From: Mesostigma viride
Lineage: Eukaryota > Streptophyta > Mesostigmatophyceae > Mesostigmatales > Mesostigmataceae
Direction: 5' to 3'
Length of the DNA: 64,000 nucleotides
Assembly: GCA_009746045.1 (NCBI GenBank)
Contig: RPFO01000434.1
Location: 107,001-171,000 of the forward strand
Made by a program: the position numbers and the translations under genes. Positions 879 to 63,566 of the stretch are shown here, piece by piece (position 1 is the stretch's first letter; every line of letters starts with the position of its first letter). The notes beneath the pieces are model-generated. The model made no database searches. It was not told the DNA's origin and saw nothing but the letters and a program-made list of their open reading frames with translations.

Positions 879-1706
879 CTTATCCCTCGCGTCCACGAGC
901 GCCTTCCCCTCGAGCACGAGCAGCCGCACCACCTCGGCGTGCCCCCGCGCCGCGGCCACGTGCAGCGCCACGCGGCCGAGCTCGTCCACCGCGCGCACGT
1001 CCACGCGCACGACCGACTTCTGCAGCAGCGACTGGACAACCTTGGCATGGCCCTTCTCCACCGCGACCATGAAAGGCACCAGACCCGAGCTGTCGTCCCT
1101 ATGCATCGGGTCCGCCCTCGCCGCCATGAGCTCATTCACCGCACCCACGTCTCCCACCGCGCACGCCGAGCACAGCTGCGCCGCCAGGGACGCCTCCAGG
1201 TCGAGCTTGACGGGCGAGACCGCTGCCGAGGAGGCCGTGAGCGAGGCTGGCGTGTGGGGGGACGCGGGGTCCAGGGGCTTTTGGCCCGCCTGGGACCCTG
1301 CGGGTGAGGCTGGGACGGGCTTGCCTGTGGTCAAGCCAGAGTCGTCATCGTTGCTGCCCCCGCGGGGGGATCCGGTTGGCAGCTTGCTGCCCGCCAGCAC
1401 AATGCCCAAGGGGCTCGAGCTAGGCGACGGTGGCCCTTTACTAGGGCTGGTCAACTGTGTTTCGTGTTGGCTGCTCGGTCCCAAGGGGCTCTTGGCTCGC
1501 CGACCCGTGGGCGTGCTCGGGTTTGAAACCCGGTCGCGGTCGCGCGCTGCGCTCGCTCCTCCCGTCGAGAGGCCAGAGTGGCGACCATCACTGCCGCGGG
1601 GTGTGCTGACGCGATCAGGCGGGGCGGTCGCGTTGACGGCGGCCAGCTCCTTGAGCAGCTGCCGGACCTCGTCGGTGGCCGCCAGGTCCAACGGTGTCTT
1701 TCCGTC
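879..1706 (-). CDS. Exon 41: last ankyrin module in the window
   Basis: 276 codons, phase 0-0, acceptor CCACAG|GACGGA, donor AAG|GTGAGA. The longest module linker is Ser/Pro/Gly/Arg-rich (TPRGSDGRHSG, SPLGPSSQHE). Repeats LCSACAVGDVGAVNELM, LVPFMVAVEKGHAKVV and LGRVALHVAAARGHAEVV follow. The open donor shows that at least one more exon lies beyond the left edge. Confidence 0.92.
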
Positions 1707-4700
1707 CTGTGGGGTTGGGTGGAGGAAAAGGTTGGTGGCAGAAAATAGTAATTCAGACACTCCTGAGGATATCAAAAGGGGCTGGTGCAACAGAGATAGT
1801 TCTTCATCAACCAGGGTCAGTGAGTTAGGGGCGGCAGGTCAAGTGTTGCCTTGCCATGCTGTCAGCGCATCAGGACACAATGACTTAGACAGACACGTAC
1901 AGATAGGGTTGGCCTAACTTAATCGGTGTTGAAAATCACCTAAGATTGGGTTTGCAGGTGCAACAGGGGGGCCAGGAGCTGAGCCATACGCCAGTCAGCG
2001 TTGCAGGGTGTGGGTTGATTTGGAGTATAAAGAGATGGGGTTTGAAGGACCAAGACGCTTTAGGACAACAGCCAACTCTCACGCTCAAAACAAGACAAGG
2101 ATGACAGCTAACCCTCACGCTAGAAAGTAGACAAGGATGATAGCTAACCCTCACGCTAGAAAGTAGACAAGGATGATAGCTAACCCTCACGCTAGAAAGT
2201 AGACAAGGATGATAGCTAACCCTCACGCTAGAAAGTAGACAAGGATAGCGGCGCCCCATGCAAAAAGCTCCCCAAAGGCATTTGACGTCAATGTCAGCTG
2301 TCTCCACTTTGCTACAGCACTTTGCTGTACATGTGTTCTCTGGCGAATCCATTAACAGACCTACCCTTCCCTCCCTTCACATGCTCAAGCAGCACCACCC
2401 ACACTCACCTTATCCCTGAGGCTAAGGAGCGCCTTGCCCTCCAGCACAAGGATCCGGACCACCTCCGCGTGCCCCATTGCGGCTGCCAGGTGCACCGCCG
2501 TGCGCCCCTTATCGTCCATCTGGCTCACGTTCACCGGCAGGACGCTCTTCTCCAGGAGCGCCCTCACGATGACCGCGTGGCCACTCTCCGCGGCCACATG
2601 GAACGAGACCAGCCCCTTCTCGTCGCGGTTCATCGGGTCCGCGCGAGATGCCAGTAGCTCCTCCACCGTGGCCAGGTCCCCCGCCGCGCACGCCGCCGAG
2701 AGCTTCCCTGCGGTGGCGAGCTTGGACTCCTTTTTTTGCTTTGAGACCATCTGGACCGCCTCACGCAGGCGCGCGGCGGCCGCCGGCTTGGGGACTCTGC
2801 GCGCGCCCATGCGGGGACTGCCAGGGGGGCGGGGACTGCCAGGAGGGCGGGGACTGCCAGGAGGGCGGGGACTGCCAGGAGGGCGGGGACTGCCGGGGGA
2901 ACGGGGGCTCCCGGGGATGTGAGTGGCGCTGCGGGGGCTGATGGAGGCGGTGGTGATTGTCGCCAGCTCGCGTAGCAGGTTTCGGACTGTGTCGCCTGCA
3001 GCCACGTCCGCCGCTGTTTTCCCCGCCTGAGGAGAAGGAATGATAGGGACACCGGAGGTTTGGATGGCAGAGATTGTTTGGGTGGATGTTACAAAGGCAT
3101 TGTTGGCTTGCAGCACGCGTGCCTATAAATCGAACTCATGGGTGGTATGAGCGAGAGGTGATTTTGTCTCACAAGGCAGGAACACACTTGACGTGGGTGT
3201 TAAAAGAAACAAACTAGCAACAAACGAATATAGATGTTTGCGCAAGCATGCTGGATGTGGGCAGTACATACACCTGCCTACTTGCCAAACCTGACGCTTG
3301 GATTAGTTAACCACCAACCAGGCTAACATGACCCAGGCGCCAACGCCCAGCAAAGAGGTGCGGCATGGCGACGTCTGTCCACCCAGGCAACCAACTAGCG
3401 AGAACTCCACAACTTGACGAAGCAACCAACTTTGACAGACCAGGGAGCCAAGCAGCACCATCTTCCCTTGCCCCCACGTATCTCACCAGTCATGCACCCC
3501 AGCATTCACTGTCTCATGCTCACATGATGCACTACTCTCTTTGAAATAGCTAATATCCAAGCACCTGACAGCCCCCCTGCCCGCCCGCCCACCCACCTTG
3601 TCCTTGACATCCACTAGCGCCTTCCCCTCCAGCACCAGCAGCTTGACGACATCTGCATGGCCCCTCAGCGCCGCCACGTGAACGGCGGTCCGGCCCAACT
3701 CATCCACGGCGTTCACGTTGACCGGCAGGATCGACTTCTCCAACAGCGCCCTCACGACCCCCGCGTGGCCATGCTCCACCGCCACCAGGAATGGGACCAG
3801 CGCCGTGCCCTCCTCGCCCTTCATGGGGTCTGCCCCGGACGCCAGCAACAGCTCCACCGCTTTGACATCCCCCAGCGCGCATGCCTGCTGCATCTGGACC
3901 GCCATCGCCGCCGTGCCCACCGCCACCGCCACCTTGGGCGTTGTCTTCCCCGTCGCCACCGCCTGGATGGCGTCGGCAGGGACCAGCACGGCGCGGTGGG
4001 CTTGCTGCTCCGGCTGGCGGCTGGCAGATGTCACCGAGGTGGAAACCGCGGCACTCGAAGCTGGCGCTGGTACAGCTGGTTGAGCAACCTGCATTTCCGT
4101 GCCCGACGTGACCACTTCTTCTGCAGGAGCCGTACGCAAAGGCACGGCCTTGATGGCTTCCGCGCGCATCGCCACCGTCCGTGTGCCGTGCTCGACCTTG
4201 CTGGCCACTGCCGCATGTCCCTGGTGGTTACCGGCGGATGTCACGAACGAGATGGTGGTGGTCTCTGGGATGGCGGCGGTGGCGGATGTCAGCTCCTTGA
4301 GCAGCTGCCGCACCTCATCGGTGGCCGCCAGGTCCAGGGGGGTCTTGCCGTCCTGTGGGGGGGTGGATGGAGGGCAGGAGAGGGTGGCTGAGATAATCAG
4401 TCAAGAAAGCTAGGTGAACGAGGGTGGGTCAATGCAGGTTTCAGAGGCAAGATTTGACAACGTAGCAACTGCACTCTGTGGATGCTTTGAAACTGGGTTA
4501 TCTGGAATCACGCCAGCAGGTGGGATGACGCACGCCAGAGGGAGGGGCAGGTACCAGCCACCAACCATGAGCAAATAAGGCGGATACGGGGCAGTGCGTC
4601 TTACTGGGAATTCAACAAACGCATTCATGCCACATCGCGGCCGATGCAACACTGGCATCGTTAACTTACATGGGCAAAAAAGAAAGAAAAAAGAATTGAA

Positions 4701-7700
4701 GTACAAACAAGATAAAAAACATGAATGTGCACCTCTCGTGCGAGATCATGGTATAGAAACATAGGTGCCATGTCAACTGTGCGGGCATGTCGCAGTCTCA
4801 CGGGCCGTTACGTACGCAGACGTGTGAGCAATCAGGTAAGATTAAAGCCGACAATGCAACTATGAAAAGAAAAGTGACTGACTAGGATGTGATGTGACCA
4901 GTTTACGCATAGGATCAAGTGCAGCCCTTCATGACCGCTGGTGTTCCCATTCATGAAAAGCACATATAAAATATCTGCTGACACCATTTGCCATGAGCAC
5001 AAACACATACGATCACGTCGCAACTATCCATCTACGCTGCAGGCAGGCACACGGTTCCGCCGCAAGTCATTGCCGCCTGCAGCGGCAGAGCATGCCCTAG
5101 TCAGTTCCATCCCTGGCGCAATCGACATGAAACTGGGGGCCCAAACAATGCACACATGCACACATGCACACATGCACACATGCACACATGCACACATGCA
5201 AACACGCAAACTCTGCGACGCAAGCATGCATACGTGTTCAGGACCAGACCTTACAGTCATTCACGCCCTCCATTGGGTTTGAGGTTTTCGAGGGGTCAAC
5301 CCAACTTACGGCGTGAAGGGCTCTACATAATTGTACTAATTTGAGTAAAGATACTTAAATATACTATTCTGAACTACTTTGAACTTAGAATGCGGAAATC
5401 CTATGCGACCCAACTTCAGGCGTGACTGCCTGTACCTTCTCCGTGACACCGATAGAGACTTCCCCTCAACTGTCATCACGTCTCCGACCTCGTCCCTTTT
5501 GGCGGGATTCCACGAGTATTACGAAGGTTCCACACAGAAAGTTTTCTCTCACCTTGTCCCTCACGTCCACGAGCGCCTTCCCCTCGAGCACGAGCAGCCG
5601 CACCACCTCGGCGTGCCCCCGCGCCGCGGCCACATGCAGCGCCACGCGCCCTCGCTCGTCCACCACGTCCACGCGTACGACCGACTTCTGTAGCACCGAC
5701 TGGACAACCTTGGCGTGGCCCTTCTCCACCGCGACAAGGAAGGGAGTAATCCCGCCACCCTCATCACTGCCACTGGCCTCATCATCATCCAACCGTTGCA
5801 TCGGGTCCGCCCCTGCCACCAGCAGCTGCTCGACCGCCTTTGCGTCCCCGATTGCGCACGCCTGCCGCAGCTGGGTCGCCATTGACGCCTTGTCCGCCGT
5901 CATGGCAAAACGTGGCGCCGTCTTGCCCACATGCACCGCCGTGCCGGGTTCTGAGGACACCGAGACTTGCGCGATGTTCTCATGCGCCACTGTGGAGGAT
6001 TCCGCCCTAGCCGTCCAATCCTGGCTGATGGCAGGGGCCACAAAGGCGGCAACGGGCCCTGGTGCGGCAGAGCTTACGGTGGCAGCAGCGGTGGTGTCTG
6101 GGATGGAGGCACTCCCGGCGGCCAGGTCCTTGAGCAGTTGCCGCACCTCGTTCGACATGGCCACGTCCAGGGGGGTCTTGCCGCCCTGTGGAACGAGAAC
6201 AACATGCACGGCGGTGGCCCTTTGTTTCAAAATGGCTGTATGAATCCTTCCATCCAATAGTGCAAAAGCTTCTGCTCAGAACAAAACACAGTATTGTGAC
6301 GTGTCCAGGAAATACCGCCAACGATTCTATATGTTCATTATTCCTTCCTGCTGGGAACAAAACAAAGTATCGTGACGTGTCCAGGAAGTATGGCCCAGGG
6401 CCGTTCCGGACACCATGAAGAGCAGCCGAACGCTACCTGGCCGTTACAAAACAGGCGCCCGTCAGAGTCTTCATAGTCGGGTTTCGCATCGCACAAATAG
6501 TACGGCTGCCACACATGTCCACATGGAATGATCCCTTTACCTACATGCGCAGTCACGAGATTCAAGTAGCCTATGATAGAGTATGCGCAGTGCCAAAAGA
6601 TACTGTACTACCATAGCTAAGCACTATAGCTATAATAGTATAAAGACTACAAACTATGGCACTTCCACGAATGATGTTGATGGCTACAAGTTTCATAGTG
6701 ACCCTTGAGAACCTCGTTATAGCAAAGGACGAGAATTCACCCTAGTTCATACCCACCTTGCCTTGGCTCCCAGCGGAGCCTTGGCTTTCAATCAAAGAGA
6801 CCGCGACGACCCAATTATTCTTAGCAACAAGACCCACCTTGTCCTTGGCTCCCAACAGAGCCTTGGCTTCCAGCGAGAGGACTTTGACCAACTCCGCGTG
6901 CCCCTGCGACGCGGCCACGTGCAGCGCCGTGCGCCCCGACTCATCCGCCACGTTCACGTCCACCGGCACGACTGACTTATGCAGCAGCGCCCTCACAACC
7001 CCCGCGTGCCCCTTCTCCACCGCCACATGCAGCGCCGTCAGCCCGCTGCCCTCATTGCGGTGGGCTGGGTCAGCCCCCGCCACCAGCAGCTGCTCGACCG
7101 CCTTTGCATCCCCGATCGCACACGCCTGCCGCAGCTGGGTCGCCATCGATGCCTTGTCCGCCGTCATGGCAAACCGCGGCGCCGTCTTGCCCACGTGCAC
7201 CGCCTTGCCTGGTTCTGAGGACACCAAGACTTGCGCGATGCTCTCGTCGGCTGCTGCCGCTGTGGAGGATATTGCCCTAGCTGTCCCACCCTGGGTGATG
7301 GCAGAGGCAGCCATGGGCACTGGGATGGCAGTGCCCGTGCTCGCAGTGGTGGCGATTGCAGTTTGCGGGCGGCTGGCAGAGCTAAAGGTGTCAGCGGGGG
7401 TGGTGCCTGGAATGGCGGCACTCCCGGCGGCCAGGTCCTTGAGCAGTTGCCGCACCTCGTTCGACATGGCCACGTCCAGGGGGGTCTTGCCACCCTGTGG
7501 AAGGAGGACAACATGCACGGTGGTGACCCTTTGTTTGTGACTAAGCATGCGCTTATGAGTCCTTCCCATAAATAGCGCAAAAGCTTCTGTTTGGATAAAA
7601 GTACAGTATTGTCATGTGCTCAGGAAATATGGCCAACGGCCGTTCAGGAAACGATGAAGAGCAGCATAGGGACAAAGCTAAGTGCGAGCACAAAAGGAAT

Positions 7701-46700: not shown

Positions 46701-49700
46701 ACAACGATAGGTAGGCTGACGCTTAGCAGATGCTTTGAAGGTTAGCATGGATATAAATCCTTCTACTATACAAGGTGATACTACAGTACAAGGTGAGCAT
46801 GGAGATACATCCTTCTACTATATAAGGTGATACTACTGTATAAGGTGAGCATGGAGATAGCACACATATATTACTATCCAAGCCATGCATCATGTGGGTG
46901 GGTGAGCACATGATGGTCGCCAGAAAGGTACACATGAAGGTACAACGGGCAAATGGGAATCCCGGGCGGCCAAATGGGCCTGCAAGGATAGGCCGGCAAA
47001 AATTAACTACCCCCCATCAACAAGCCCCAGAGCATCAGCCAACAGCCCGCTCCTGGACGCTACCATCGGCCGGCCAGCTACTCACTCTTGGACGCTTGCT
47101 GCCGTTGCATCCAGCTCAGAAGCAGCGTGAGCACGGCCTCGTTGTGCGCCAGGTCAAAGGGGGTCTTGTCCGCCTGCTCGAGTGCAAGGGTACAGGGAAG
47201 GGTACACGCGGTGAGATTAACGGAAAGGTACAAGAGAAGCGTACAAGGGAAGAGCATTAGGGAAAGATACAACAGAAGGATTAAAGGGAAGACTATTAGA
47301 GAAGGGTACAACGGAAGACTATTAGGGAAAGGTACAAGAGAAGGATTTAAGGGAAAAGGATAAGGGAAGGGTACAAGCAAAAGGATAAAAGGTAAGACTA
47401 TTAGGGAATGGTAGAAGAGAAGGATGAAAGGGAAGACTATTAGGGAATGGTACAAGACAAGGATGAAAGGGAAGACTATAAGAGAAGGGTACAATAGAAG
47501 GATACAACGGAAGACTATTAGGGAAAGGTACAAAAGAAGGATTTAAGGGCAAAGGATTAGGGAAGGGTACAAGAGAAGGATAAAAGGGAAGACTATTAGG
47601 GAAGGGTACAAAAGAAGGATAAAAGGGAAGACTAATAGGGAAGGGTACAAGAGAAGGATTTAAGGGAAAATGATTAGGGAATGGTAGAAGAGAAGGATGA
47701 AAGGGAAGACTATTAGGGAAGGGTACAAGAGAAGGATAAAAGGGAAGACTAATAGGGAAGGGTACAAGAGAAGGATAAAAGGGAAGACTAATAGGGAAGG
47801 GTACAAGAGAAGGATAAAAGGGAAGACTATTAGGGAAGGGTACAAGAGAAGGATAAAAGGGAAGACTATTAGGGAAGGGTACAAGAGAAGGATAAAAGGG
47901 AAGACTAATAGGGAAGGGTACAAGAGAAGGATAAAAGGGAAGACTAATAGGGAAGGGTACAAGAGAAGGATAAAAGGGAAGACTAATAGGGAAGGGTACA
48001 AGAGAAGGATAAATGGAAAAGAGTATTAGATACAAGAGAAGGACACAAGGTTGTACACCTATGTCACCGGCGACGATAACAAGACTTGCAAAACTCTTCA
48101 ACTGTTTCAATGTCGAGCAACCATTCTTGAAACAGACCGTCCGACTCTGCCACCTCCAATGATCTCCCGCCCACTTGCCATGTTGGTGGCGTGCAGGTCG
48201 GCATGGCCCGCCAGCAGCGCCTCGCACACCGAGTAGCGCCCCGCGCCGGCCGCAAAGTGAAGCGGTGTGTTGCCATACTGCAGGAGGGCGGCACCCAAAC
48301 AAGGGAAGGATAAAGCATGGCGACAATAGGGGCCGTCAGGTGGGATCCCTGATTCCCTGGGGCCATCAGGTGGGCTCCCTGATTGCCTGGTGGTCCAACC
48401 CCAGGGCTCCCCAATAGGCCAACCGACAACCATTAAAGCAAGGATAGCCTTGACAGGGTTAATTATGTGCTTGCTTGGTAACGTCCTGGCATGGGCCTGA
48501 CCAAGGTCGAAATCAGCCTGAACTTAACAGAGGCGAGTTGCGCGTACGGTCCGAAAAGATGGCTTTCGGAAGCAGACGGTGGCTCATATTGTGGTAGGAA
48601 CCATCGTCTCATCACGGCCGTAAGCCTCCTGAACTAGAAAAGAGATACTATTCTTGGTTTCTTTAAAAATGGATTATTGATGAACAGAAAACTAATTCCG
48701 GATAGGTGCACGCACTTTTGACAATGCTCAATCAGGCAAAAGATAGCCAATCTTCAGGATCTTCGCCCTCTCCATAATTTTCTCAAGGACCCCTCCCAAC
48801 ACGCCATGTCGCTCCTCACCTCATCCGCACAGTCCACCGGTGCGCCCTTCTGCAGCAGCACAGTCACCGCGTCCAAGTGCCCCTTGACTGCCGCCCAGTG
48901 CAGAGGGGACTCGCCAAACTGGGAGAGTAGAAAAAACAAAAGGCCAGGAACCAGCACCCAGCAAGCGTAGGAGGAAGGGCAAGAAGAAAAGCAGATAAGA
49001 GAGCAGTCCTTCAGAAAAGAAGCTCGCATGATGTGAGATACCAAACATGTCCCAGTGAGTCAAAGTATCAACAAATAGAGCAATCAGCGAGAACAATCAG
49101 GGAGAAGAGTCAGGAGGAACGATCAGGTAGAAAAATCAGGAGGCAGTTCATGGGACAGCGTTTCAAGGTCCACGCGGTGGACTTGTCACGCTGCGGCAAT
49201 GACACCCGCACATTGCCCGACCTTGGGCGTGACACGGGGCTAGCAAATCCCTTGGCATCTGTGCATCAAGTCTGCACCAAGCACATCTTTAGTCTGTCTC
49301 ACTAGCCACAGCTAATGGCCATCCAAATATTCACCATTAATAACAATAATTATTATTATTATCATTATATACATAATAATAGGCTTAGGGCTTAGGGCAA
49401 GTTGAAGGTACCCTGGTTTGCGGGGTGATAAGTGGAAAAGCTCGCATCTTTACAATCCAAGTGTGGAAAGCTTGTCCTGCTTTGCTACCCTCTCTGCGCC
49501 CAGCCATGCTCAGCAACGCCTGAAAGATTGTGGTGTTCGTGGGGAGCCAGGCCGGGAACCGGCACGTGCGTGATTGGGTGGGCTCGCTGCCTGCATGGCT
49601 CAGCCGGTTGATGGGTGGGAGGTCAGGCACGCGGGTGAATGGGCGGGTGGGTTGGTGGCAAGCGTGTGGGTGGTGGGTGGGTGGCTGGCTGCCCAGCAGA

Positions 49701-52492
49701 GGGATGGATGACTGGGTGAAGTAGGACATTGGTTGCGAAGAAAAGAACGATTCTTTCGATCACAACCGCACAGCATATCTCTGGACCCCAGCCAGCCATC
49801 GCATGAAGGCAACAGCACAGCACTAATGATCACAGTTGCCCCCGTGGCCGGGGCCACACAAGCATCCAACATGTCAGCCAGCGAGTAACGAAGAAAAATC
49901 AAAAAATGAGACCAACGATCAATAATATCATGGAAACAAAGCAAGCAGATACCGATTGCTCACGTTCATCCTTACTGGTCAGGCAATCGACCCGGGTACT
50001 GCTTGGAACTAGCGGCGGCATACGATACCACCAGCAGAAAGCCTAGCCTGCTGGCGAGCCTAGAATGCATGGAAGCCAACAAGGAACTATGACATTTGCT
50101 ATATTGCACCTAACAATACCACTGAAGTGATTGCCTGATTCTTCAGTAACTTAATCCAATCGGTCTGATAATTAATTGAAATCCTACTATACTACCATAC
50201 AATCCTCGTTCGAAACTCTTTGCCGAGCACTAGGCACAACGGCTCCAGTCATGCCACGCACGTTATCCTGGGCCTTGACGTCGGCGTCGTGCGCAAGCAG
50301 AAGCTGGATGATCTCTTTATTGCCCGCGTCCGCTGCCCAGTGAAGCGCAGAACGCTTGTTCTGTCCACAAAGAGAAACAAGGTAGTAAAGGAGAAACAAG
50401 GAAGAAGTGGAGGGCGAAGGGTCATGAAAAAAACCTTCCCTTGGATTCTCTGGGCACCACCGTATGATGGAAGGCAAATTATTTCTTTCGTCCACACAGA
50501 CATGACATGTCACGCTCCTTTGACCGCCACATAGCACACCAAAATGTGCGGGCGTAAAAACCCTTGTGCAACTGGGCATAGGAAATGAAGCACAGAAGGG
50601 CTTGAAGCCAAAAATTGCACCCACACAGCACCCATCCCTGTGACTTCTGCCAGCATCCTTACCCTCGCTTTTACCCTAACCCACAAGGTCCACGCCACCT
50701 GGCACAAGGTGGGCCAGTAGAACATATGCTCAGAACTGAAACCTCCTCATCCTCTCCAGTTCCTCTCCTCTCCCTCTCCCTCTTCCTCTCCGTCTCCCTC
50801 TTCCTCTTCCTCTCCCTCTCCCTCTCCCTCTCCCTCTCCCTCTCCCTCTCCCTCTCCCTCTCCCTCTCCCTCTCCCTCTCCCTCTCCCTCTCCCTCTCCC
50901 TCTCCCTCTCCCTCTCCCTCTCCCTCTCCCTCTCCCTCTCCCTCTCCCTCTCCCTCTCCCTCTCCCTCTCCTCTCTCCCTCTCCCGCTACCTCTCCCTCT
51001 CCCTCTTCCTCTCCCTCTCCCTCTCCCTCTCCCTCTCCCTCTCCCTCTCCCTCTCCCTCTCCCTCTCCCTCTCCCTCTCCCTCTCCCTCTCCCTCTCCCT
51101 CTCCCTCTCCCTCTCCCTCTCCCTCCCTCTCCCTCTCCCTCTCCCTCTTCCTCTTCCTCTTCCTCTTCCTCTCCCTCTCCCTCTTCCTCTTCCTCTCCTC
51201 TTCCTCTTCCTCTTCCTCATCCTCTTCCTCTTTCCCCACTTCCTCCTTTTTGACGCAACGGCGGGCATTCTGCATCTGTTCATGCCCTTAAAAGCAAAAA
51301 GGCAAAATGCAAGGTGCGTATTTGTAGATGTGTCTTAATGCCAGACAACGCAGCAAAACTTGTCAGCTGGCTAGGTTGACCACTAGTAAGCATCACGAAC
51401 GCCTTTCTGTGTATTTCCTACACAGCTATAGTCTCAGCACACAAATAACAGAACATGCGAGCTTCGTCAAGGTTGTTATTGGTGGGTCTGCCGAGGGTCT
51501 GCGCTATTATTCAAGGGTCACGACAACGCTGCCAATGCGTAAGTCCAGTTATGCGTATGTGCTCGAACAAGCAACAAGGGGAGCATGCAACTTACCAAGT
51601 CTGATGCATTGGGGTTGGCCCGGTGAGCCAACAATCTTCGCACGCTGGCCACGTCCCCCGCTGCTGCCGCTCGCAACAGTCCGTCGTTTAGTAGCGTCTG
51701 GCGGGATGCCTGGAGATTGCACGTATTCAGGGTTGGCCAGCACACATGCAGTGGCAGTTGAGGATAAGCACAGCATGAGCTGGATGAACGGAAAAGCTTG
51801 TGGATAAGACAGAGCTCATGGCATCTAAAGCGTGCAGAATTTTGAAACGGGGAACACCGCATTTTCTACAAGGCTTCTTCAACAGAGTTCGTGCATAGGC
51901 GCGAGAGCTGGCACGTCATTAAGGCAAGCAAACCATTTGTCATCCTGACCTTCAAAATGCGAGATTGGATTCCCGCCTGCTCCTTGCCCGGATTGAGAAT
52001 CAACGAGGGCTGCTGCTTCTGTTTCGCAGGTGTGGCCCTTTTGGGAGCAGGAACAGGCTGTTCTTGTACCTGCTCTTTTTCCGCAAAAAGTCCGCCTGAA
52101 TTACCTGACAGCATTTTGATAAGCTTGTCAACGCTTTCCAAGACTACGTTATCCGGTGGCAAGGGGCTAGGCTGCTGAGGCGCTGGCCTGTTGGCTGGAA
52201 GAGACGACGGTCCCGACGCTGAGGCTGGGGAGTTTTTTTGCGAGCGGGAAGCTGAATTGGAAAAGGCATTCCGCAACGTGTCAAGGCCACGAGACCCCGC
52301 CGTAGTTTCGGGTTCGACTTCATGTGCAAACTCATCCAGCAGCGAGGGGGACGTTACTGTCAACGGTTCGATCTGTCTCTTCTTACTCGCATTTCCAGCG
52401 GACGGGCTCCTTGTTTCTACCGGGGGAGCCTTGGGCCTAGGGGTTCGGGTAGAACCCGCCCGCTTTTTTCGGGTTTCCTGCGGGGTAGGCAT
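879..52492 (-). CDS. Giant multi-exon ankyrin-repeat protein gene, 41 exons traced, 3' end outside window
   Basis: I see 41 consecutive minus-strand exons, each bounded by an AG acceptor and a GT donor (one GC donor), with all reading frames compatible. By my count they give about 7,454 codons without a stop. Introns are phase 0 except those between exons 6/7 and 16/17 (phase 1). Most introns cut the ankyrin fold at the same point, just before the G-x-T-P-L motif, so exons are symmetrical and can be duplicated without breaking frame. The 5' part has one repeat per exon, the middle has large low-complexity exons, and the 3' part has single-exon modules of three repeats plus a linker. Ankyrin repeats are protein-binding scaffolds; no enzyme domain, signal peptide or membrane segment was seen. 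The last exon seen ends in a good donor, so the gene continues beyond base 1. It could instead be several genes, but no internal start, stop or promoter suggests that. Confidence 0.82.
2066..2247. repeat. 36-bp minisatellite in intron 40
   Basis: About 4-5 copies of a 36-bp unit containing GATAGCTAACCCTCACGC and TAGAAAGTAGACAAG. The first copies are diverged. Confidence 0.9.
2409..3026 (-). CDS. Exon 40: ankyrin module with Pro-Gly-Ser-Pro-Arg repeat linker
   Basis: 206 codons, phase 0-0, acceptor CCTCAG|GCGGGG, donor AAG|GTGAGT. The linker carries a six-residue unit (PGSPRP) repeated about six times, encoded by an 18-bp minisatellite at about 2815-2925. Repeats LSAACAAGDLATVEELL, LVSFHVAAESGHAVIV and KGRTAVHLAAAMGHAEVV follow. 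Confidence 0.92.
3597..4352 (-). CDS. Exon 39: ankyrin module with long linker
   Basis: 252 codons, phase 0-0, acceptor CCACAG|GACGGC, donor AAG|GTGGGT. After the cap (EVRQLLKELTS-like: MRQLLKELTSATAAIPET) comes a linker of roughly 125 residues, then repeats QQACALGDVKAVELLL, LVPFLVAVEHGHAGVV and LGRTAVHVAALRGHADVV. Confidence 0.92.
4353..5552 (-). other. Intron 38 (exons 38/39), largely featureless
   Basis: 1.2 kb between exons with no ankyrin motif in any frame. It holds an (ACACATGC)n microsatellite at about 5147-5200; I see nothing else of note. Confidence 0.7.
5147..5201. repeat. (ACACATGC)n microsatellite
   Basis: About six to seven perfect 8-bp units inside intron 38. Confidence 0.9.
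5553..6185 (-). CDS. Exon 38: ankyrin module with an acidic insert
   Basis: 211 codons, phase 0-0, acceptor CCACAG, donor AAG|GTGAGA. The 5' part matches the 657-nt copies, but the 3' part matches exon 41 (ARGRVALHVAAARGHAEVV-like). Repeat b carries an extra acidic loop (RLDDDEASGSDEGGG). It reads as a recombinant of two module types. Confidence 0.92.
6838..7494 (-). CDS. Exon 37: 657-nt ankyrin module, copy 10 of 10
   Basis: 219 codons, phase 0-0. Copy-specific: AHRNEGSG and PADTFSSAS. A distal in-frame donor is intact at 6756/6757 (AAG|GTGGGT); its use would add 27 codons. Confidence 0.95.
8093..8749 (-). CDS. Exon 36: 657-nt ankyrin module, copy 9 of 10
   Basis: 219 codons, phase 0-0. 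Unlike the other copies, the frame closes six codons past the donor (KDKVGLVA then TAG) because of a small substitution near 8073-8078. Intron retention or a distal donor would therefore truncate the protein here. Confidence 0.95.
9348..10004 (-). CDS. Exon 35: 657-nt ankyrin module, copy 8 of 10
   Basis: 219 codons, phase 0-0. By eye essentially identical to copy 9; both carry APRSAM and LEPGKAV. The distal donor is lost. Confidence 0.95.
10603..11259 (-). CDS. Exon 34: 657-nt ankyrin module, copy 7 of 10
   Basis: 219 codons, phase 0-0. By eye it differs from copies 6 and 8 at only a few bases (for example APRFAM versus APRSAM). The distal donor is lost. Confidence 0.95.
11857..12513 (-). 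CDS. Exon 33: 657-nt ankyrin module, copy 6 of 10
   Basis: 219 codons, phase 0-0, nearly identical to copies 7-9. Its acceptor flank matches the exon 28/31 type (CGTTCCACAG) rather than the CCTTCCACAG of copies 7-9, as expected from exchange between copies. The distal donor is lost. Confidence 0.95.
13111..13767 (-). CDS. Exon 32: 657-nt ankyrin module, copy 5 of 10
   Basis: 219 codons, phase 0-0. Copy-specific: LLKDLVAGSASIPDTT in the cap/linker and KAQLGAKDK at the end. The distal donor is lost (AAGATGGGT). Confidence 0.95.
13768..14363 (-). other. Chimeric intron (class A body, class B 5' end)
   Basis: In transcript direction the first 130 or so bases match class B introns (including the CCTAGTTCATACCCACC side), and the rest matches class A. 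The switch is near 14220-14235, inside a short block shared by both classes (TGAGTGACCCTTGAGAACCT). This looks like a recombination junction. Confidence 0.75.
14364..15020 (-). CDS. Exon 31: 657-nt ankyrin module, copy 4 of 10
   Basis: 219 codons, phase 0-0. Copy-specific: ALHVSVEKG in repeat b, KAQLGAKDK at the 3' end and KTAPWFAM in the linker. The distal donor is intact near 14285. The following intron (13768-14363) is a chimera of the two intron classes. Confidence 0.95.
15670..16326 (-). CDS. Exon 30: 657-nt ankyrin module, copy 3 of 10
   Basis: 219 codons, phase 0-0. Copy-specific: TALRVAAS in repeat c (Arg for the usual His at the conserved TALH position) and a linker of the TASTDTAIAVPMAASATTQG type. 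The distal donor is destroyed (AAGGGCTGT). Confidence 0.95.
16982..17638 (-). CDS. Exon 29: 657-nt ankyrin module, copy 2 of 10
   Basis: 219 codons, phase 0-0. Copy-specific: AASRGHAELV in repeat c, QKSVVP in repeat b, and a linker reading TAREVSSTAAAVDES. The distal donor keeps its GT (AAG|GTGGGT near 16900). Confidence 0.95.
18242..18898 (-). CDS. Exon 28: 657-nt ankyrin module, copy 1 of 10
   Basis: 219 codons, phase 0-0. This describes the shared copy layout: residues 1-22 cap the previous repeat (GGKTPLDVAMSNEVRQLL), 23-116 are an Ala/Thr/Ser/Pro linker, 117-148 repeat a (LRQACAIGDAKAVEQLL), 149-183 repeat b (LTALHVAVEKGHAGVV) and 184-219 repeat c (SGRTALHVAASQGHAELV) ending KDK at the donor. 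Copy-specific: a 9-bp duplication (CCAAGTATT) just inside the intron, and the distal donor GT is mutated to AT. Confidence 0.95.
19547..20164 (-). CDS. Exon 27: ankyrin module, first of the high-similarity series
   Basis: 206 codons, phase 0-0, acceptor CACCAG. It shares the 3' two thirds of the 657-nt copies but has a shorter, diverged linker (residues about 23-100). A second, distal in-frame donor (AAG|GTGGGT) lies about 90 nt downstream. Transitional between the older modules and the amplified array. Confidence 0.92.
20386..20961 (-). CDS. Exon 26: ankyrin module
   Basis: 192 codons, phase 0-0, acceptor CATCAG|GACGGC. Cap DGKTPLDVAMSNEVRQLL, linker, then repeats LCAACALGDVAAVNELL, LVPLLVAVEGGHAGVV and SGRTALHMAASRGHAEVV. 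Donor AAG|GTGAGG. Confidence 0.93.
20962..21957 (-). other. Intron 25 (exons 25/26)
   Basis: About 1 kb with no supportable exon, repeat or RNA gene. Short open frames here lack ankyrin motifs. Confidence 0.6.
21958..22539 (-). CDS. Exon 25: ankyrin module
   Basis: 194 codons, phase 0-0, acceptor CTGCAG|AGTGGC. Cap of the SGKTPLDLA type, linker, then repeats LCQACSVGQVAAAEELL, TVPLLVAAEGGHAGVV and SGRTALHVAASRGHAEVV. Donor AAG|GTGAGA. Confidence 0.93.
22540..24806 (-). other. Introns 23 and 24 around exon 24
   Basis: Apart from exon 24 (23313-23903) nothing is recognised. A short (AGC)n run near 24450 is the only low-complexity tract. The 45 bp flanking the exon 24 donor are duplicated at exon 26. 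Confidence 0.6.
23313..23903 (-). CDS. Exon 24: ankyrin module
   Basis: 197 codons, phase 0-0. Cap DGKTPLDLAMSNEVRQLL, Ala/Ser/Thr/Val linker, and repeats LCRACAIGDATAVEQLL, LVPLLVAAEGGHAVVV and SGRTALHVAASRGHAEVV. About 55 bp at its 3' end and donor flank are essentially identical to exon 26 near 20356-20410. Confidence 0.93.
24807..25415 (-). CDS. Exon 23: ankyrin module with poly-Ala linker
   Basis: 203 codons, phase 0-0, acceptor CCCCAG|GGTCAA. Cap GQKTPLDLAISDEMAQLL, then a linker holding an Ala run encoded by (GCA/GCT)n near 25285-25310, then three repeats including LRQACAIGDARAVEQLL. Donor AAG|GTGAGG. Confidence 0.92.
25416..26387 (-). other. Intron 22 (exons 22/23)
   Basis: About 0.97 kb. 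The part at 26010-26385 is a degenerate tandem of 35-90 bp AT-rich units with recurring TTATCTTGTGTTCTTATT-like and CTCACCAGGTCACGAAT-like phrases. The second resembles the donor end of exon 22, so the tandem may be built partly from decayed exon ends. Confidence 0.65.
26388..26939 (-). CDS. Exon 22: first single-exon ankyrin module
   Basis: 184 codons, phase 0-0, acceptor CCACAG, donor TTG|GTGAGC. Order: ankyrin cap (GGKAPQDLALDDDLRQL), about 60-residue linker, then three repeats (LCEACANGDVKLVKELL; GLAPLHFAAEGGHVEVV; FGRTALHAASLLGHAEVA). This is the most diverged of the modules. Confidence 0.9.
27206..30901 (-). CDS. Exon 21: 1,232-codon exon with four ankyrin clusters and long linkers
   Basis: Acceptor AAACAG|AGCGGC and donor AAG|GTGGGC, phase 0-0. 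It starts with the cap of block 4 (SGATPLDVAGTKEAQNLL), then about 600 residues of Ser/Ala/Gly/Pro/Thr-rich sequence. Ankyrin clusters follow near 28960-28690 (LLRAAKVGSLERVEALL), 28500-28230 (LLKACVKGDLVAVRLML), 28140-27770 (LMRAATKGDAKSVRSLI) and 27515-27206 (QLAAACAQGDVRAVEELL). The first three clusters have no intron at the usual split point; only the last is cut there. It may therefore be a fused or intron-loss intermediate between the split 5' exons and the 3' modules. Confidence 0.88.
30950..31455. repeat. (GGTC)n / (GGGT)n tetranucleotide satellite in intron 20
   Basis: About 55 perfect GGTC units (30950-31170), a short GGCC/GGTC transition, about 30 GGGT units (31196-31316), then interrupted GGTC/GGAC and a final GGGT run. 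On the transcript strand it is (GACC)n and (ACCC)n. It lies between the exon 20 donor and exon 21 acceptor, ending about 50 bp from the acceptor. Confidence 0.97.
32095..32193 (-). CDS. Exon 20: one ankyrin repeat
   Basis: 33 codons, phase 0-0: LGRTPLHEAARHGQLAMM, then LLLWRADVDHLDT. Acceptor CTTCAG, donor ACC|GTGAGT. Confidence 0.92.
32709..32880 (-). pseudogene. Decayed copies of the 3' half of exon 19
   Basis: Two imperfect copies of the exon 19 tail and donor region (around the plus-strand phrase GCCCCAGCCATGCTTG and ACCTTATTCG) lie at about 32820-32878 and 32709-32760. The frame and splice signals are damaged. They look like failed exon duplications. Confidence 0.7.
32908..33006 (-). 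CDS. Exon 19: one ankyrin repeat
   Basis: 33 codons, phase 0-0: DKRTALHHAAHRGHVEAA, then LLKHGWGVNASNK. Acceptor ACACAG, donor AAG|GTAGGC. Two decayed copies of its 3' half and donor lie just downstream in the intron (near 32820-32878 and 32709-32760). Confidence 0.9.
33425..33640. repeat. 35-bp minisatellite in intron 18
   Basis: About four units containing GACGGCAAGAACAGCTCCAA and CAACAGCGCAGACAA, grading into diverged copies on the left. Confidence 0.88.
33650..34140. repeat. Degenerate CA-rich tandem repeat in intron 18
   Basis: Recurring phrases such as CACCCACCGTGCCGTGACCA and CATCCACCATGACACATGCA, spaced roughly 60-110 bp. Unit borders cannot be fixed by eye. Confidence 0.7.
34158..34292 (-). 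CDS. Exon 18: opening ankyrin repeat of block 4
   Basis: 45 codons, phase 0-0. Two tandem acceptors (CAG CAG) allow 45 or 44 codons, a NAGNAG-type choice of one Gln. LLLAADNNDVAMLEQLI then GGASVDFTDM is a clear ankyrin repeat. Donor ATG|GTGGGT. Confidence 0.82.
34293..34773 (-). other. Intron 17 (exons 17/18)
   Basis: Two or three short G-rich duplicated phrases (GTGAGGGGAGGC-like, about 34320-34400) sit close to the exon 18 acceptor. Nothing else is recognised. Confidence 0.6.
34774..34847 (-). CDS. Exon 17: short linker exon
   Basis: 74 nt, phase 1 in (acceptor ATATAG|AC) and phase 0 out (AAG|GTGAGG), which complements the phase 1 donor of exon 16. It encodes DMFKKFTATETPAEM then PPVRSKPRK, a basic linker. 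It is supported mainly by the phase match and splice sites. Confidence 0.7.
35307..35478 (-). CDS. Exon 16: ankyrin cap plus Ser/Pro linker
   Basis: 172 nt, phase 0 in and phase 1 out (CCTG|GTGGGT). NGETPIMLSSTKSIRRLM closes block 3. Then comes a Pro/Ser/Thr repeat-like stretch (SPVTSP units) that looks disordered. Confidence 0.82.
35495..35755. repeat. Tandem repeat of about 95-105 bp in intron 15
   Basis: Three copies of a unit containing GTGTCACAGCAAGCGATGAC and ATAGCACCCAGTTGGAAGGG. Each unit also contains an imperfect copy of the exon 16 acceptor region (CATTCCAGTCCCAGGAAGG on the plus strand), so the exon edge has been co-duplicated. Confidence 0.88.
36380..36478 (-). CDS. Exon 15: one ankyrin repeat
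   Basis: 33 codons, phase 0-0: RGRTPLHIASSCGHRDVA, then LMRSGANIEALDN. Acceptor CACCAG, donor AAC|GTACGT. Confidence 0.92.
36479..38356 (-). other. Introns 13 and 14 around exon 14
   Basis: At 36505-36640, short tandem phrases of about 40 bp (ATAGATGCACAAGTGCC) repeat three to four times. At 37920-37995, GATGATGCATGGATTT repeats about four times. 37740-37900 is strongly AT-rich. No gene seen besides exon 14. Confidence 0.65.
37242..37340 (-). CDS. Exon 14: one ankyrin repeat
   Basis: 33 codons, phase 0-0: NGESLLHVAAMYGQVDVA, then LLRRGASIEATDK. Acceptor ACGCAG, donor AAG|GTGTGT. Confidence 0.92.
38357..38452 (-). CDS. Exon 13: opening ankyrin repeat of block 3
   Basis: 32 codons, phase 0-0: MVQAAKEGKVGYLRDLI, then DAGGNVDRRSK. 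Acceptor ACACAG, donor AAG|GTGCGT. A decayed copy of its 5' end lies about 290 bp upstream in transcript direction (near 38690-38745). Confidence 0.85.
38690..38745 (-). pseudogene. Decayed copy of the 5' part of exon 13
   Basis: The plus-strand phrase CTTGGCTGCTTGCACCATC next to a CTGCTTGACA acceptor-like site copies exon 13 (38425-38455) and its acceptor flank. The copy lacks the second half of the repeat and a donor. A surrounding stretch (about 38480-38530 versus 38760-38790, GGGTATAAAG) is duplicated too. Confidence 0.7.
39044..39478 (-). CDS. Exon 12: acidic, Ser/Pro-rich linker
   Basis: 145 codons, phase 0-0, acceptor CCCCAG and donor GAG|GTGGGT. It continues the disordered spacer of exon 11, with an acidic patch (HDSDVENDEEKFFSLGGW) followed by Ser/Asp-rich sequence. 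No recognised domain. Confidence 0.78.
39728..39870. repeat. (TCC)n / (GGA)n microsatellite in intron 11
   Basis: About 47 uninterrupted trinucleotide units, 27 bp downstream of the exon 11 donor in transcript direction. On the transcript strand the open frame reads GAG, i.e. poly-Glu if the intron were retained. Confidence 0.97.
39898..42732 (-). CDS. Exon 11: 945-codon low-complexity exon
   Basis: Acceptor TGACAG|GGAGAC and donor CTG|GTGAGT, phase 0-0, exactly 2,835 nt. It opens with a half ankyrin cap (GDTSLDLSARFD) and then becomes Ser/Ala/Pro/Val/Thr-rich, with Gln runs near 42530-42600 and a 17-residue unit repeated three times at about 40300-40455. No ankyrin repeat or enzyme domain is visible inside. 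It is probably a long disordered spacer between ankyrin blocks 2 and 3. Past the donor the frame stays open through an intronic GAG microsatellite. Confidence 0.8.
40300..40455 (-). repeat. 51-bp coding repeat in exon 11
   Basis: Three near-perfect 51-bp units encode the 17-residue unit SSILRSASSSASEKAAV. The length is a multiple of three, so frame is kept. Confidence 0.93.
43210..43280. repeat. (ATC)n/(ATT)n microsatellites in intron 10
   Basis: Short perfect runs ATCATCATC and ATTATTATT at about 43236-43275. Confidence 0.85.
43457..43546 (-). CDS. Exon 10: degenerate closing ankyrin repeat
   Basis: 30 codons, phase 0-0. LGVSPLDMAKSVSS keeps the x-G-x-S-P-L-D start of a capping repeat; the rest is Ser-rich with a short helix (VQDMLGELSA). 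Acceptor TCACAG, donor CAG|GTGGGT. Confidence 0.75.
43547..44745 (-). other. Intron 9 (exons 9/10)
   Basis: 1.2 kb without ankyrin motif, tandem repeat or recognisable RNA gene. Open frames of 60-140 codons lack any family signature. Confidence 0.6.
44746..44844 (-). CDS. Exon 9: one ankyrin repeat
   Basis: 33 codons, phase 0-0: VGKTALHHAVARGFGGIA, then LLVAAGADVNKLDK. Acceptor CCACAG, donor AAG|GTAGGA. Confidence 0.92.
45236..45337 (-). CDS. Exon 8: one ankyrin repeat
   Basis: 34 codons, phase 0-0: ITGNTLLHIAAYEGHTELV, then FLLRCGLPPNQTCK. Acceptor GTCCCAG, donor AAG|GTGTGT. One residue longer than the standard 33. Confidence 0.87.
45338..46115 (-). other. Intron 7 (exons 7/8)
   Basis: Contains small direct repeats (TACGAGCTTGTCAGGTTA / ACAAGCTGGGCAGGTTAG near 45370-45425, and GTTAGCTTAC twice near 45513-45550). 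No exon candidate with an ankyrin signature. Confidence 0.6.
46116..46372 (-). CDS. Exon 7: linker and start of ankyrin block 2
   Basis: 257 nt. The phase 1 acceptor GCGACAG|GC fits the phase 1 donor of exon 6; another CACAG twelve bases later would be phase 0 and does not fit. It encodes a linker (FLPQFFNDAWRG and on) and then the opening ankyrin repeat LVGAVYAGDVERVIALVEEG, ending NTREE at donor GAG|GTGAGG. Confidence 0.72.
46420..46548. repeat. Second copy of the CACGTG leader plus 29-bp minisatellite (3 copies)
   Basis: Leader AATAAGCACGTGAATGCGTCACGTG, given here as position 46420-46444, then three 29-bp units of the same GGAACCTCCGACCCC type as at 497-771. The inverted arms are seven bases here. 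It lies in intron 6, directly before exon 7's acceptor side. Confidence 0.92.
46549..47085 (-). other. Remainder of intron 6
   Basis: Holds a pair of 60-bp imperfect direct repeats (ATCCTTCTACTATA, at about 46745-46860). No supportable exon. Confidence 0.6.
47086..47173 (-). CDS. Exon 6: closing half-repeat of ankyrin block 1
   Basis: 29 codons plus one base: phase 0 acceptor (GAGCAG) and phase 1 donor AAGA|GTGAGT. ADKTPFDLAHNEAVLTLLL is a degenerate capping repeat, then a basic/polar helix (WMQRQQASK). It closes a five-repeat cluster made of exons 2-6. Confidence 0.82.
47195..48035. repeat. 39-bp purine-rich minisatellite, about 20 copies, in intron 5
   Basis: Unit of about 39 bp built from GGGAAGACTAATAGGGAAGG and GTACAAGAGAAGGATAAAA. 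The copies at 47700-48010 are nearly perfect and the rest diverged with unit-length changes. The array starts about 20 bp from exon 6. Confidence 0.95.
48179..48277 (-). CDS. Exon 5: one ankyrin repeat with a GC donor
   Basis: 33 codons, phase 0 acceptor CTGCAG. It encodes YGNTPLHFAAGAGRYSVC and ends LHATNM. The only frame-keeping donor is ATG|GCAAGT, a GC-AG intron with otherwise perfect donor consensus. The GT one position along would leave phase 1 and break the join to exon 6. Confidence 0.85.
48820..48918 (-). CDS. Exon 4: one ankyrin repeat
   Basis: 33 codons, phase 0-0, with FGESPLHWAAVKGHLDAV followed by LLQKGAPVDCADE. Acceptor CTCCCAG, donor GAG|GTGAGG. Confidence 0.92.
48919..50261 (-). 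other. Intron 3 (exons 3/4)
   Basis: 1.34 kb. (ATT)n run at about 49344-49370 and GTGGGTGGGTGG-type short repeats at about 49640-49690. No ankyrin motif or RNA gene found. Confidence 0.65.
50262..50360 (-). CDS. Exon 3: one ankyrin repeat
   Basis: Exactly 33 codons, phase 0-0. Motifs NKRSALHWAADAGN and LLLAHDADVKAQDN are canonical ankyrin helices and finger. Acceptor TGGACAG, donor AAC|GTGCGT. Confidence 0.9.
50750..51240. repeat. (CCCTCT)n hexanucleotide array in intron 2
   Basis: About 480 bp of almost pure CTCTCC hexamers with a few TTCCTC interruptions. The transcript strand is (GGGAGA)n, a homopurine tract. Confidence 0.97.
51596..51709 (-). CDS. Exon 2: first ankyrin repeat half
   Basis: 38 codons, phase 0 on both sides, acceptor CTCCAG and donor TTG|GTAAGT. 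It encodes the helix pair and turn of an opening ankyrin repeat (LLRAAAAGDVASVRRLL, then HRANPNASDL). The repeat continues across the intron into exon 3, whose start supplies the next G/R-S-A-L-H motif. Confidence 0.85.
51950..52492 (-). CDS. Exon 1: N-terminal basic, Pro/Ser-rich region with the start codon
   Basis: 181 codons from ATG at 52492. An in-frame TAG lies five codons upstream, which supports this start. The translation begins MPTPQETRKKRAGST and has basic clusters (KKR near residues 9-11, KKRQ further on), then Ser/Pro/Ala/Gln-rich sequence that looks disordered. The basic clusters could be nuclear localisation signals, but that is inference. The exon ends ILK at a donor reading AAG|GTCAGG, weaker than the other donors in this gene. 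Phase 0. Confidence 0.75.
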
Positions 52493-63393: not shown

Positions 63394-63566
63394 TTCGGTG
63401 CTCCGTGACTCCCCAACGGGAGCACGAGTTTAATTAATTAAGTAGCTTCCATCATCATTCCGTCATCATTCCGTCATCGCGGCTCACAGAAGGGCACCAG
63501 CCTTATGCTGGCATCTGCCACCCCTATAGTGACCCTATAGTGACCGCGGCCTGGGGTGGGGTATCA

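What the first reader, a model, noticed from the sequence alone, without database searches (positions are those of the whole stretch)
879..52492. One ankyrin gene of more than 51 kb with at least 41 frame-compatible exons and about 7,450 codons
Every exon I could trace joins the next without a stop or frame break across about 40 introns, including two phase-1 introns matched on both sides. Chance or unrelated genes would not give this. The result would be an unusually large ankyrin protein of some 100 repeats in about 25 clusters separated by flexible linkers, still open at the 3' end. The architecture suggests a giant modular scaffold or spring not tied to any family I can name.
Basis: partly seen in the sequence, partly recalled or inferred. 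Interest (0 to 1): 0.9.

Follow-up and report, generated by a model that had tools for sequence, protein, structure and literature searches.

The report
Giant ankyrin-repeat U-box ubiquitin ligase gene
A very large, many-exon gene encodes a protein built mostly of ankyrin-repeat modules joined by floppy linkers, and sequence beyond the window shows that it ends in a kinase-like domain and a U-box, so it is probably a giant multivalent ubiquitin ligase whose module number can change by copying exons.

Summary
In detail: on the minus strand 41 exons (52492 to 879; 22,368 nt; 7,456 codons) join without a stop, and 55 of 56 six-frame ankyrin hits fall in them. "Scaffold or spring of no known family" does not hold. 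The window is C810:107001-171000 of a 440-Mb genome. Left of it the gene runs on to a stop: model of 57 exons, 70.7 kb, 9,463 aa. The last exon encodes an RLK/Pelle/IRAK-type kinase domain with changed catalytic residues (predicted pseudokinase) and a U-box. A paralogue on C1524 has the same order with kinase motifs largely intact. Best reading: an ankyrin-kinase-U-box ubiquitin ligase whose modules multiplied by duplication of phase-0 exons. Array exons 28-37 are 94-97% identical in protein to exon 30; pooled selection is purifying; introns recombined. Unity of all 57 exons is unproven: introns 6 and 16 could be gene boundaries. Exons 18-48, about 6,790 codons, need no inter-cluster intron. 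No RNA; organism unnamed.

The parts
51950..52492 (-). Exon 1: start codon and basic, disordered-looking N-terminus (181 codons)
   Evidence: only 4 codons open upstream of the ATG before an in-frame stop
51596..51709 (-). Exon 2: N-terminal repeat of ankyrin cluster 1
50262..50360 (-). Exon 3: one 33-aa ankyrin repeat
48820..48918 (-). Exon 4: one 33-aa ankyrin repeat
48179..48277 (-). Exon 5: one 33-aa ankyrin repeat; GC donor
47086..47173 (-). Exon 6: C-cap repeat; phase-1 donor; stop after 2 codons beyond the donor (weak joint)
46116..46372 (-). Exon 7: linker and first repeat of cluster 2
45236..45337 (-). Exon 8: one ankyrin repeat
44746..44844 (-). Exon 9: one ankyrin repeat
43457..43546 (-). 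Exon 10: C-cap of cluster 2
39898..42732 (-). Exon 11: 945 aa, mostly low-complexity linker, no Pfam family
39044..39484 (-). Exon 12: linker
38357..38452 (-). Exon 13: first repeat of cluster 3
37242..37340 (-). Exon 14: one ankyrin repeat
36380..36478 (-). Exon 15: one ankyrin repeat
35307..35478 (-). Exon 16: C-cap and linker; phase-1 donor; stop after 5 codons beyond (weak joint)
34774..34847 (-). Exon 17: linker; in-frame ATG at its first whole codon
34158..34292 (-). Exon 18: first repeat of cluster 4; from here to exon 48 the linkers between clusters lie inside single exons
32908..33006 (-). Exon 19: one ankyrin repeat
32095..32193 (-). Exon 20: one ankyrin repeat
27206..30901 (-). Exon 21: 1,232 aa, C-cap, long linker and ankyrin clusters 5-8
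26388..26939 (-). Exon 22: unit = C-cap half + linker + three repeats
24807..25415 (-). Exon 23: unit
23313..23903 (-). Exon 24: unit
21958..22539 (-). Exon 25: unit
20386..20961 (-). Exon 26: unit
19547..20164 (-). Exon 27: unit, intron type B
18242..18898 (-). Exon 28: array unit, intron type A
16982..17638 (-). Exon 29: array unit, intron type B
15670..16326 (-). Exon 30: array unit, intron type B; modelled by AlphaFold2
14364..15020 (-). Exon 31: array unit, mosaic A/B intron
13111..13767 (-). Exon 32: array unit, intron type A
11857..12513 (-). Exon 33: array unit, intron type A
10603..11259 (-). Exon 34: array unit, intron type A
9348..10004 (-). Exon 35: array unit, intron type A
8093..8749 (-). 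Exon 36: array unit, intron type A; exon identical to exon 35
6838..7494 (-). Exon 37: array unit, intron type B
5553..6185 (-). Exon 38: apparent chimera: 5' part like the array, 3' end 90% identical (207 bp) to the end of exon 41
3597..4352 (-). Exon 39: unit
2409..3026 (-). Exon 40: unit
879..1706 (-). Exon 41: last exon in the window; the gene continues left in the contig (exons 42-57, C810:106399-88771, outside the window)
6186..20164 (-). Tandem array of 11 exon-plus-intron units (1,253-1,312 bp each), exons 27-37

Best explanation
The finding is the 5' four fifths of one giant gene. The modelled protein (9,463 aa, 57 exons) consists of about 34 ankyrin clusters, mostly of four repeats, on low-complexity linkers, then an RLK/Pelle/IRAK-type kinase domain that has probably lost catalysis, then a C-terminal U-box. 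Shown by sequence: the exons, the ankyrin fold of the unit (predicted model), the domains, the altered kinase motifs, the homogenised array and a paralogue of the same domain order. Inferred: it works as a U-box E3 ubiquitin ligase. The clusters, ten of them near-identical (exons 28-37), would bind the same partner many times over (as tankyrase's ankyrin clusters do, recalled); the pseudokinase would serve as docking or regulatory module; the U-box would recruit an E2 and ubiquitinate what is gathered. Because the unit exons start and end in phase 0 at the same point of the repeat, adding or losing an exon by unequal exchange keeps the frame and an intact cluster, so the number of binding modules is easily changed.
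For: Gene model and splice signals. Pfam: Ank_2 down to 3e-60; PK_Tyr_Ser-Thr 6.8e-19, Pkinase 4.9e-13, U-box 5.4e-11, each above its curated cut-off. Best PDB relatives of the kinase: PBL2, IRAK3, SymRK, BIK1. Aligned with the paralogue: glycine loop not recognisable, AIKK to AVRR, HRDLKSSN to HRSLRSSK, GDTG to SDIS. Paralogue C1524: 17 ankyrin HMM hits at E<=0.05, all on the + strand, then a kinase with AIKK and HRDLKSSN, then a U-box; Pfam U-box at C1524:1545019-1545183, E 1.8e-10. Of three joins tested, two gain: exon 30 to 31 lifts Ank_2 from 64.7 to 90.9 bits, exon 39 to 40 from 54.5 to 89.0. Pooled pN/pS in exons 27-38: 0.38 ankyrin, 0.26 C-cap, 0.78 linker. AlphaFold2 of the unit: residues 33-105 below pLDDT 50, ankyrin part mostly 85 or above; the top Foldseek entries are mostly DARPin or ankyrin structures.
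Against: No transcript, protein or activity data. The third join tested, exon 21 to 22, gains nothing (66.0 to 65.0 bits). Inter-cluster introns 6 and 16 can be read as gene ends, and with free boundaries the gene finder does not exclude breaks at introns 9, 12, 13, 15 and 16. The finder also ran past both gene ends (174075 to 84087; to 87558), so the stop at 88771 is my reading of the ORF, and I dropped its 60-nt exon at C810:96548-96489. Exons 42-56 come from the finder, so their recovery is not independent. One neighbouring pair, exons 36-37, has more replacement than silent changes (4.5 against 0.5; too few to judge). Ligase activity and ligands are inferred only. The number of near-identical units depends on the assembly.
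Confidence: 0.72

Rival explanations
1. Two or three neighbouring genes: exons 1-6 and 7-16 are separate ankyrin genes, and the giant gene begins at exon 17 (first whole codon ATG). The giant would still have 41 exons and about 7,685 aa.
For: A stop is met after 2 codons past the exon-6 donor and after 5 past the exon-16 donor; exon 17 opens with an in-frame ATG. With free gene boundaries the finder starts a 25-exon piece at exactly that ATG (34845), breaking intron 16 costs nothing and intron 6 costs 4.2 nats.
Against: The gaps (713 and 459 nt) sit inside the intron-length range 221-1,479 (median 690), leaving little room for 3' UTR, promoter and 5' UTR; both sides match in phase 1 with usable splice sites; with ordinary penalties the finder returns one gene; short read-through to a stop is found at exons 7, 9, 13, 36 and 40 too.
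Confidence: 0.22
2. A recombining immune-like receptor: single-exon repeats shuffled and alternatively spliced to vary binding specificity, as proposed for brown-algal LRR-ROCO genes (PMC11378527).
For: 12 of 57 exons are 99 nt, one repeat each; 20 symmetric unit exons in the window; recombined introns; RLK/Pelle-type kinase domain.
Against: The array is homogenised, not diversified: pooled ankyrin pN/pS is 0.38 in exons 27-38 and 0.53 in the older units, and none of the five regions exceeds 0.85; the one pair above 1 (exons 36-37) rests on 5 changes. No splice data.
Confidence: 0.12
3. Partly dead locus: only the kinase/U-box end and some ankyrin exons are used, and the array is a non-functional by-product of unequal exchange.
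For: Predicted pseudokinase; very recent identical copies (exons 35 and 36); degenerate copies of exon ends in introns.
Against: The 20 unit exons of the window are open and symmetric; pooled pN/pS is below 1 in the five regions measured; the U-box is well kept.
Confidence: 0.06

Closest known systems
Plant and algal U-box E3 ligases (PUB), including kinase-U-box (STK) and ankyrin-U-box types
   Same: C-terminal U-box after a kinase domain. PMC4378952 (passages and section 16 seen) reports 30 Chlamydomonas PUBs of 207-4,072 aa, 5 with ankyrin repeats, kinase domains among the extra domains, and STK among the extra domains of Arabidopsis and rice PUBs.
   Different: 9,463 aa here; about 34 ankyrin clusters, a predicted pseudokinase and an internal array of near-identical exons.
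Ankyrin-kinase-U-box paralogue on contig C1524 of the same genome
   Same: Order of ankyrin exons, RLK-type kinase, U-box; 10 of its 32 predicted exons are 99 nt.
   Different: Kinase keeps glycine loop, lysine and HRD; no unit array seen in the 40 kb read; its 5' end was not reached and parts of the model are doubtful.
Tankyrase ankyrin clusters (recalled, not searched)
   Same: Several clusters of ankyrin repeats on linkers, each binding the same kind of peptide, giving multivalency.
   Different: Catalytic part is PARP, not U-box; five clusters, not about 34.
KEG (RING-kinase-ankyrin) and XB3 plant E3 ligases (KEG and XB3's RING recalled; XB3 as ankyrin-containing E3 in a passage of PMC4707873)
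   Same: Ankyrin repeats and ubiquitin ligase in one protein; KEG also has a kinase.
   Different: RING rather than U-box, other order, far fewer repeats.
Brown-algal LRR-ROCO genes (PMC11378527, passages seen)
   Same: One repeat per exon of fixed length and phase, internal duplication of exons.
   Different: LRR in 72-bp phase-2 exons under diversifying selection, against ankyrin in 99-nt phase-0 exons under purifying selection; different catalytic domains.
Apolipoprotein(a) kringle IV-2 array (recalled)
   Same: Tandem genomic unit inside one gene whose copy number sets protein length.
   Different: Different domain and function; variation between individuals not tested here.

Membership tests
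Ankyrin-repeat proteins | Several tandem ~33-residue ankyrin repeats above curated cut-offs | tested here: met
   Pfam in 8 of 9 pieces, the ninth being linker exon 11 with 0 families; predicted fold
U-box E3 ubiquitin ligases | U-box domain above the curated cut-off | tested here: met
   PF04564 42.9 bits against cut-off 21.4, profile 1-63 of 73
U-box E3 ubiquitin ligases | E2-dependent ubiquitin transfer | not testable with these tools
   needs biochemistry
RLK/Pelle/IRAK kinases | Kinase domain closest to this group | tested here: met
   best PDB matches PBL2, IRAK3, SymRK, BIK1; sequence search only, no tree built
RLK/Pelle/IRAK kinases | Catalytic residues (glycine loop, VAIK Lys, HRD Asp, DFG) | tested here: not met
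   loop not recognisable, Lys to Arg, HRD to HRS, DFG position DIS: predicted pseudokinase
Kinase-U-box PUBs | Kinase followed by C-terminal U-box in one reading frame | tested here: met
   both in one exon ORF, C810:90281-88771
One gene from exon 1 to 57 | Continuous transcript | tested here: inconclusive
   repeat logic and gene finder favour it; introns 6 and 16 ambiguous; no RNA
Diversifying repeat-exon receptors (ROCO-like) | Diversifying selection on repeats | tested here: not met
   pooled pN/pS at most 0.85 in five regions; one pair of exons above 1 on 5 changes

The most novel reading that the evidence does not exclude
One transcript encodes a ubiquitin ligase of about 9,500 aa, whose substrate-binding valency is set by a recombining array of frame-neutral exons. 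Copy number, and perhaps inclusion of the symmetric exons, would vary between individuals or isoforms, so that ligase avidity is tuned by exon number while a pseudokinase gates the U-box.
Probability: 0.3. Interest if true: 0.85.

Novelty: new variant of a known kind. Interest (0 to 1): 0.68.

Why it matters
It would be a U-box ligase more than twice as long as the longest of the 30 Chlamydomonas PUBs (4,072 aa, PMC4378952), with about 34 substrate-type modules. That is a natural case in which multivalency of an E3 can be read from exon number. The array, with exons far more alike than introns and two intron types recombined among units, makes the growth of repeat proteins by frame-neutral exon duplication directly testable by comparing individuals.

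Tried and rejected
Close relatives of unit exon 30 in viral contigs: none; of exon 21 in genome contigs: none. The wide protein database was switched off, so that query could not be made. Rfam: 0 matches in the window; tRNA: 0. Idea of a spring or pure scaffold: dropped after the kinase and U-box were found. Idea of a diversifying immune receptor: not supported by pooled pN/pS. Clean clades of intron types A and B in the exon tree: not found; each label needs 3 changes, no fewer than shuffled labels often need (219 and 236 of 500), and exon 37 (type B) groups with exons 33-36 (type A) at support 91/87. Gene finder with free gene ends: too permissive to prove unity. In print: of the five answered full-text searches of an open-access subset I saw listings, cut to 6 of 14 papers and 8 of 45; none of the listed titles or abstract starts describes an ankyrin-kinase-U-box giant. 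That is no proof of absence. Searches of the own genome for relatives of exon 30 and of exons 1-10 did not complete, so paralogues of these parts and a second copy of the array were not sought directly. The organism was not identified.

Full report
What was checked. The window (64,000 bases, 56% GC, no N) holds on its minus strand a series of ankyrin-coding exons. I set the splice sites from the sequence and obtained 41 exons from 52492 to 879, 22,368 nt, 7,456 codons, no stop. Exon edges within clusters lie at one point of the repeat (..DK | xGxTPLH..) in phase 0; introns 6 and 16 are phase 1. Single repeats are often exactly 99-nt exons: 12 of the 57 exons of the full model. Pfam finds ankyrin families in 8 of the 9 pieces given, the ninth being the low-complexity exon 11.

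Is it more than chance? An ankyrin HMM built from nine single-repeat exons of the model, run on 1,514 six-frame ORFs, hits 56 times at E<=0.01; 55 hits lie in modelled exons (the nine seeds included), and the other is a decayed copy of the end of exon 19 in the next intron. A small ab initio gene finder gives one gene with 37 of 41 exons exact when splice profiles come from most introns, though it then adds 25 small exons upstream. With splice profiles from 10 introns, confined to window 1-54000 and held open at the left, it gives one gene with 30-31 of 41 exact. On the wider locus, trained on the window's exons, it gives one gene of 61 exons with 53 of the 57 model exons exact (38 of the first 41; exons 1, 11, 12 and 57 not exact; its end at 87558 lies beyond the stop at 88771), score 4,524, against 982 in antisense (eight genes) and 2-47 on five block-shuffled sequences. 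Limits: with free gene ends it breaks the window's part into 17 pieces, of which the last, 25 exons from 34845 to 879, stays whole. So unity rests on the repeat logic as well. From exon 18 to exon 48 the linkers between clusters lie inside single exons whose two ends are parts of repeats, so a gene end at an intron there would cut a cluster; this stretch is 20,374 nt or about 6,790 codons (exon lengths).

What lies beyond the window. The window's genome (439.9 Mb, 2,243 contigs, unnamed) became searchable; the window is C810:107001-171000. Ankyrin hits continue to the left. I read C810:77001-107000. The gene finder carries the gene on without a break, but it also runs past both ends (174075 and 84087), so it cannot set them. 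I took its exons 42-56, left out its 60-nt exon at 96548-96489 and its exons beyond 88798, and read the last ORF to its stop: 57 exons, C810:159492 to 88771, 70,722 bases, 9,463 aa, 962 kDa, 52 phase-0 and 4 phase-1 introns. By eye there are about 136 repeats in about 34 clusters; the own HMM finds 90 at i-E<=10 and 68 at <=0.01.

The C-terminus. Exon 57 matches PK_Tyr_Ser-Thr (6.8e-19), Pkinase (4.9e-13) and U-box (5.4e-11). The best-scoring solved kinases are PBL2, IRAK3, SymRK and BIK1, that is the RLK/Pelle/IRAK group (grouping recalled). Alignment shows no recognisable glycine loop, Arg for the ATP-binding Lys, HRS for HRD, Lys for the catalytic-loop Asn and DIS for DFG. I call it a predicted pseudokinase. 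The U-box motif (EPFTAEDGYTYERKAIREWM) looks intact.

A paralogue. Exon 57 finds 18 matches in its own genome, itself included (85 of 285 candidates scored); the best other is C1524:1542698-1543642. Reading 40 kb there gave 17 ankyrin HMM hits at E<=0.05, all on one strand, and a gene model of 32 exons, 10 of them 99 nt, with a kinase (glycine loop, AIKK, HRDLKSSN) and then a U-box after the ankyrin exons; Pfam also lists that U-box. Some middle exons and the tail beyond the U-box are doubtful. So ankyrin-kinase-U-box occurs at least twice in this genome, which supports joining exon 56 to exon 57. The genome holds 47 U-box matches at E<=0.001.

How the gene grew. Exons 22-41 are twenty unit exons (half C-cap, linker, three repeats). 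Exons 27-37 form a tandem array of 1,253-1,312 bp units; the proteins of exons 28-37 are 94-97% identical to exon 30. Summed over the ten neighbouring pairs, differences are 1.6, 2.1 and 3.8% at codon positions 1, 2 and 3, and 11.0% in introns. Two intron types (A and B, 23-26% apart plus indels) alternate along the array, and exon 31 carries a mosaic intron. The exon tree disagrees with the intron types: exon 37 (type B) groups with exons 33-36 (type A), support 91/87. Exon 38 looks chimeric, with an end 90% like that of exon 41. I read this as unequal exchange plus conversion tracts centred on exons. Between exons 27 and 28 the two exon indels (27, 12 nt) are multiples of three, against 2 of the 11 intron indels. 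Pooled selection is purifying: pN/pS 0.38 (ankyrin), 0.26 (C-cap), 0.78 (linker) in exons 27-38, and 0.53, 0.49, 0.84 in exons 22-27 and 38-41; the two short regions between linker and ankyrin give 0.37 and 0.32, and 0.64 and 0.85. Pair by pair, 17 of 19 neighbours lie at or below 0.60, one (35-36) has no change, and one, exons 36-37, is above 1 on five changes.

Fold. AlphaFold2 of exon 30 with the 20 unit exons as alignment gives mean pLDDT 67.6: confident ankyrin helices and a linker (residues 33-105) below 50. The top Foldseek entries are mostly DARPin or ankyrin structures.

Mechanism. Best reading: a multivalent U-box ligase. Ankyrin clusters gather partner proteins, the near-identical array clusters probably the same partner many times; the pseudokinase docks or regulates; the U-box ubiquitinates. 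Domains and anatomy are shown; ligase activity, ligands and regulation are inferred. Symmetric phase-0 exons leave the number of clusters free to change without breaking frame or fold; that this happens in populations is untested.

Weak points. Introns 6 and 16 could be gene boundaries; then the giant would start at exon 17 and still have about 7,685 aa. Intron sizes there (713, 459) fit the rest. Of three joins tested by Pfam, one (21-22) gains nothing. The copy number of near-identical units may suffer from assembly. Organism: unnamed; RLK-type kinases, many U-box genes and a CCCTAAA-like tract suggest the green lineage, but this is inference, not a test.

Known ground. Kinase-U-box and ankyrin-U-box proteins are known in plants and Chlamydomonas (PMC4378952: passages, section 16). 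Repeat-per-exon genes with duplication are known from brown algae (PMC11378527: passages). The combination at this size, with a homogenised exon array, was not among the listings seen. I file it as a new variant of a known kind.

Noticed in passing
introns after exons 7, 13, 19, 22, 37, 41, 46 and 54 (e.g. window 32873-32817 and near 26320; L009 after exon 46): Degenerate copies of the exon end plus donor site recur a little way into the same intron: 13 copies in 8 of 47 introns (nine near-identical array introns left out), against a mean of 0.6 and a maximum of 5 in 200 swaps of introns. Local duplication of splice donors; unexplained.
   Followed up: partly
window 6186-20164 (-): Exons of neighbouring units are far more alike than their introns; two intron types are interleaved and recombined, suggesting conversion tracts centred on exons.
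   Followed up: partly
window 498-787 and 46413-46554: A 134-bp dispersed element, 95.5% identical in two places and overlapping a 29-bp minisatellite, lies in introns 41 and 6 of the gene.
   Followed up: partly
window 56387-59218 (+): A divergent neighbouring gene with F-box and leucine-rich repeats.
   Followed up: partly
window 35457-35746: 102-bp tandem repeat of copies resembling the acceptor and start of exon 16, in intron 15 and reaching into exon 16.
   Followed up: no
L010 (C810:96177-96111): Exon 50 has two in-frame donors 66 bp apart because its end is duplicated; either gives an open protein.
   Followed up: no
G000:C1446:810835-818340 (-): A single 2,739-aa open frame with many ankyrin matches: another large ankyrin gene, apparently with few introns.
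   Followed up: no
G000, e.g. C1480:2780993, C2133:6938588, C1106:8474410, C335:5681810: U-box matches lie within about 3-4 kb upstream of ankyrin matches on the same strand: possible U-box-ankyrin genes of the reverse order.
   Followed up: no
window 63566-63593: Four copies of ACCCTAA, a CCCTAAA-type telomere-like tract.
   Followed up: no
window 62947-63429 (-): Open frame that looks by eye like a retrotransposon reverse-transcriptase remnant; Pfam gave 0 families.
   Followed up: partly
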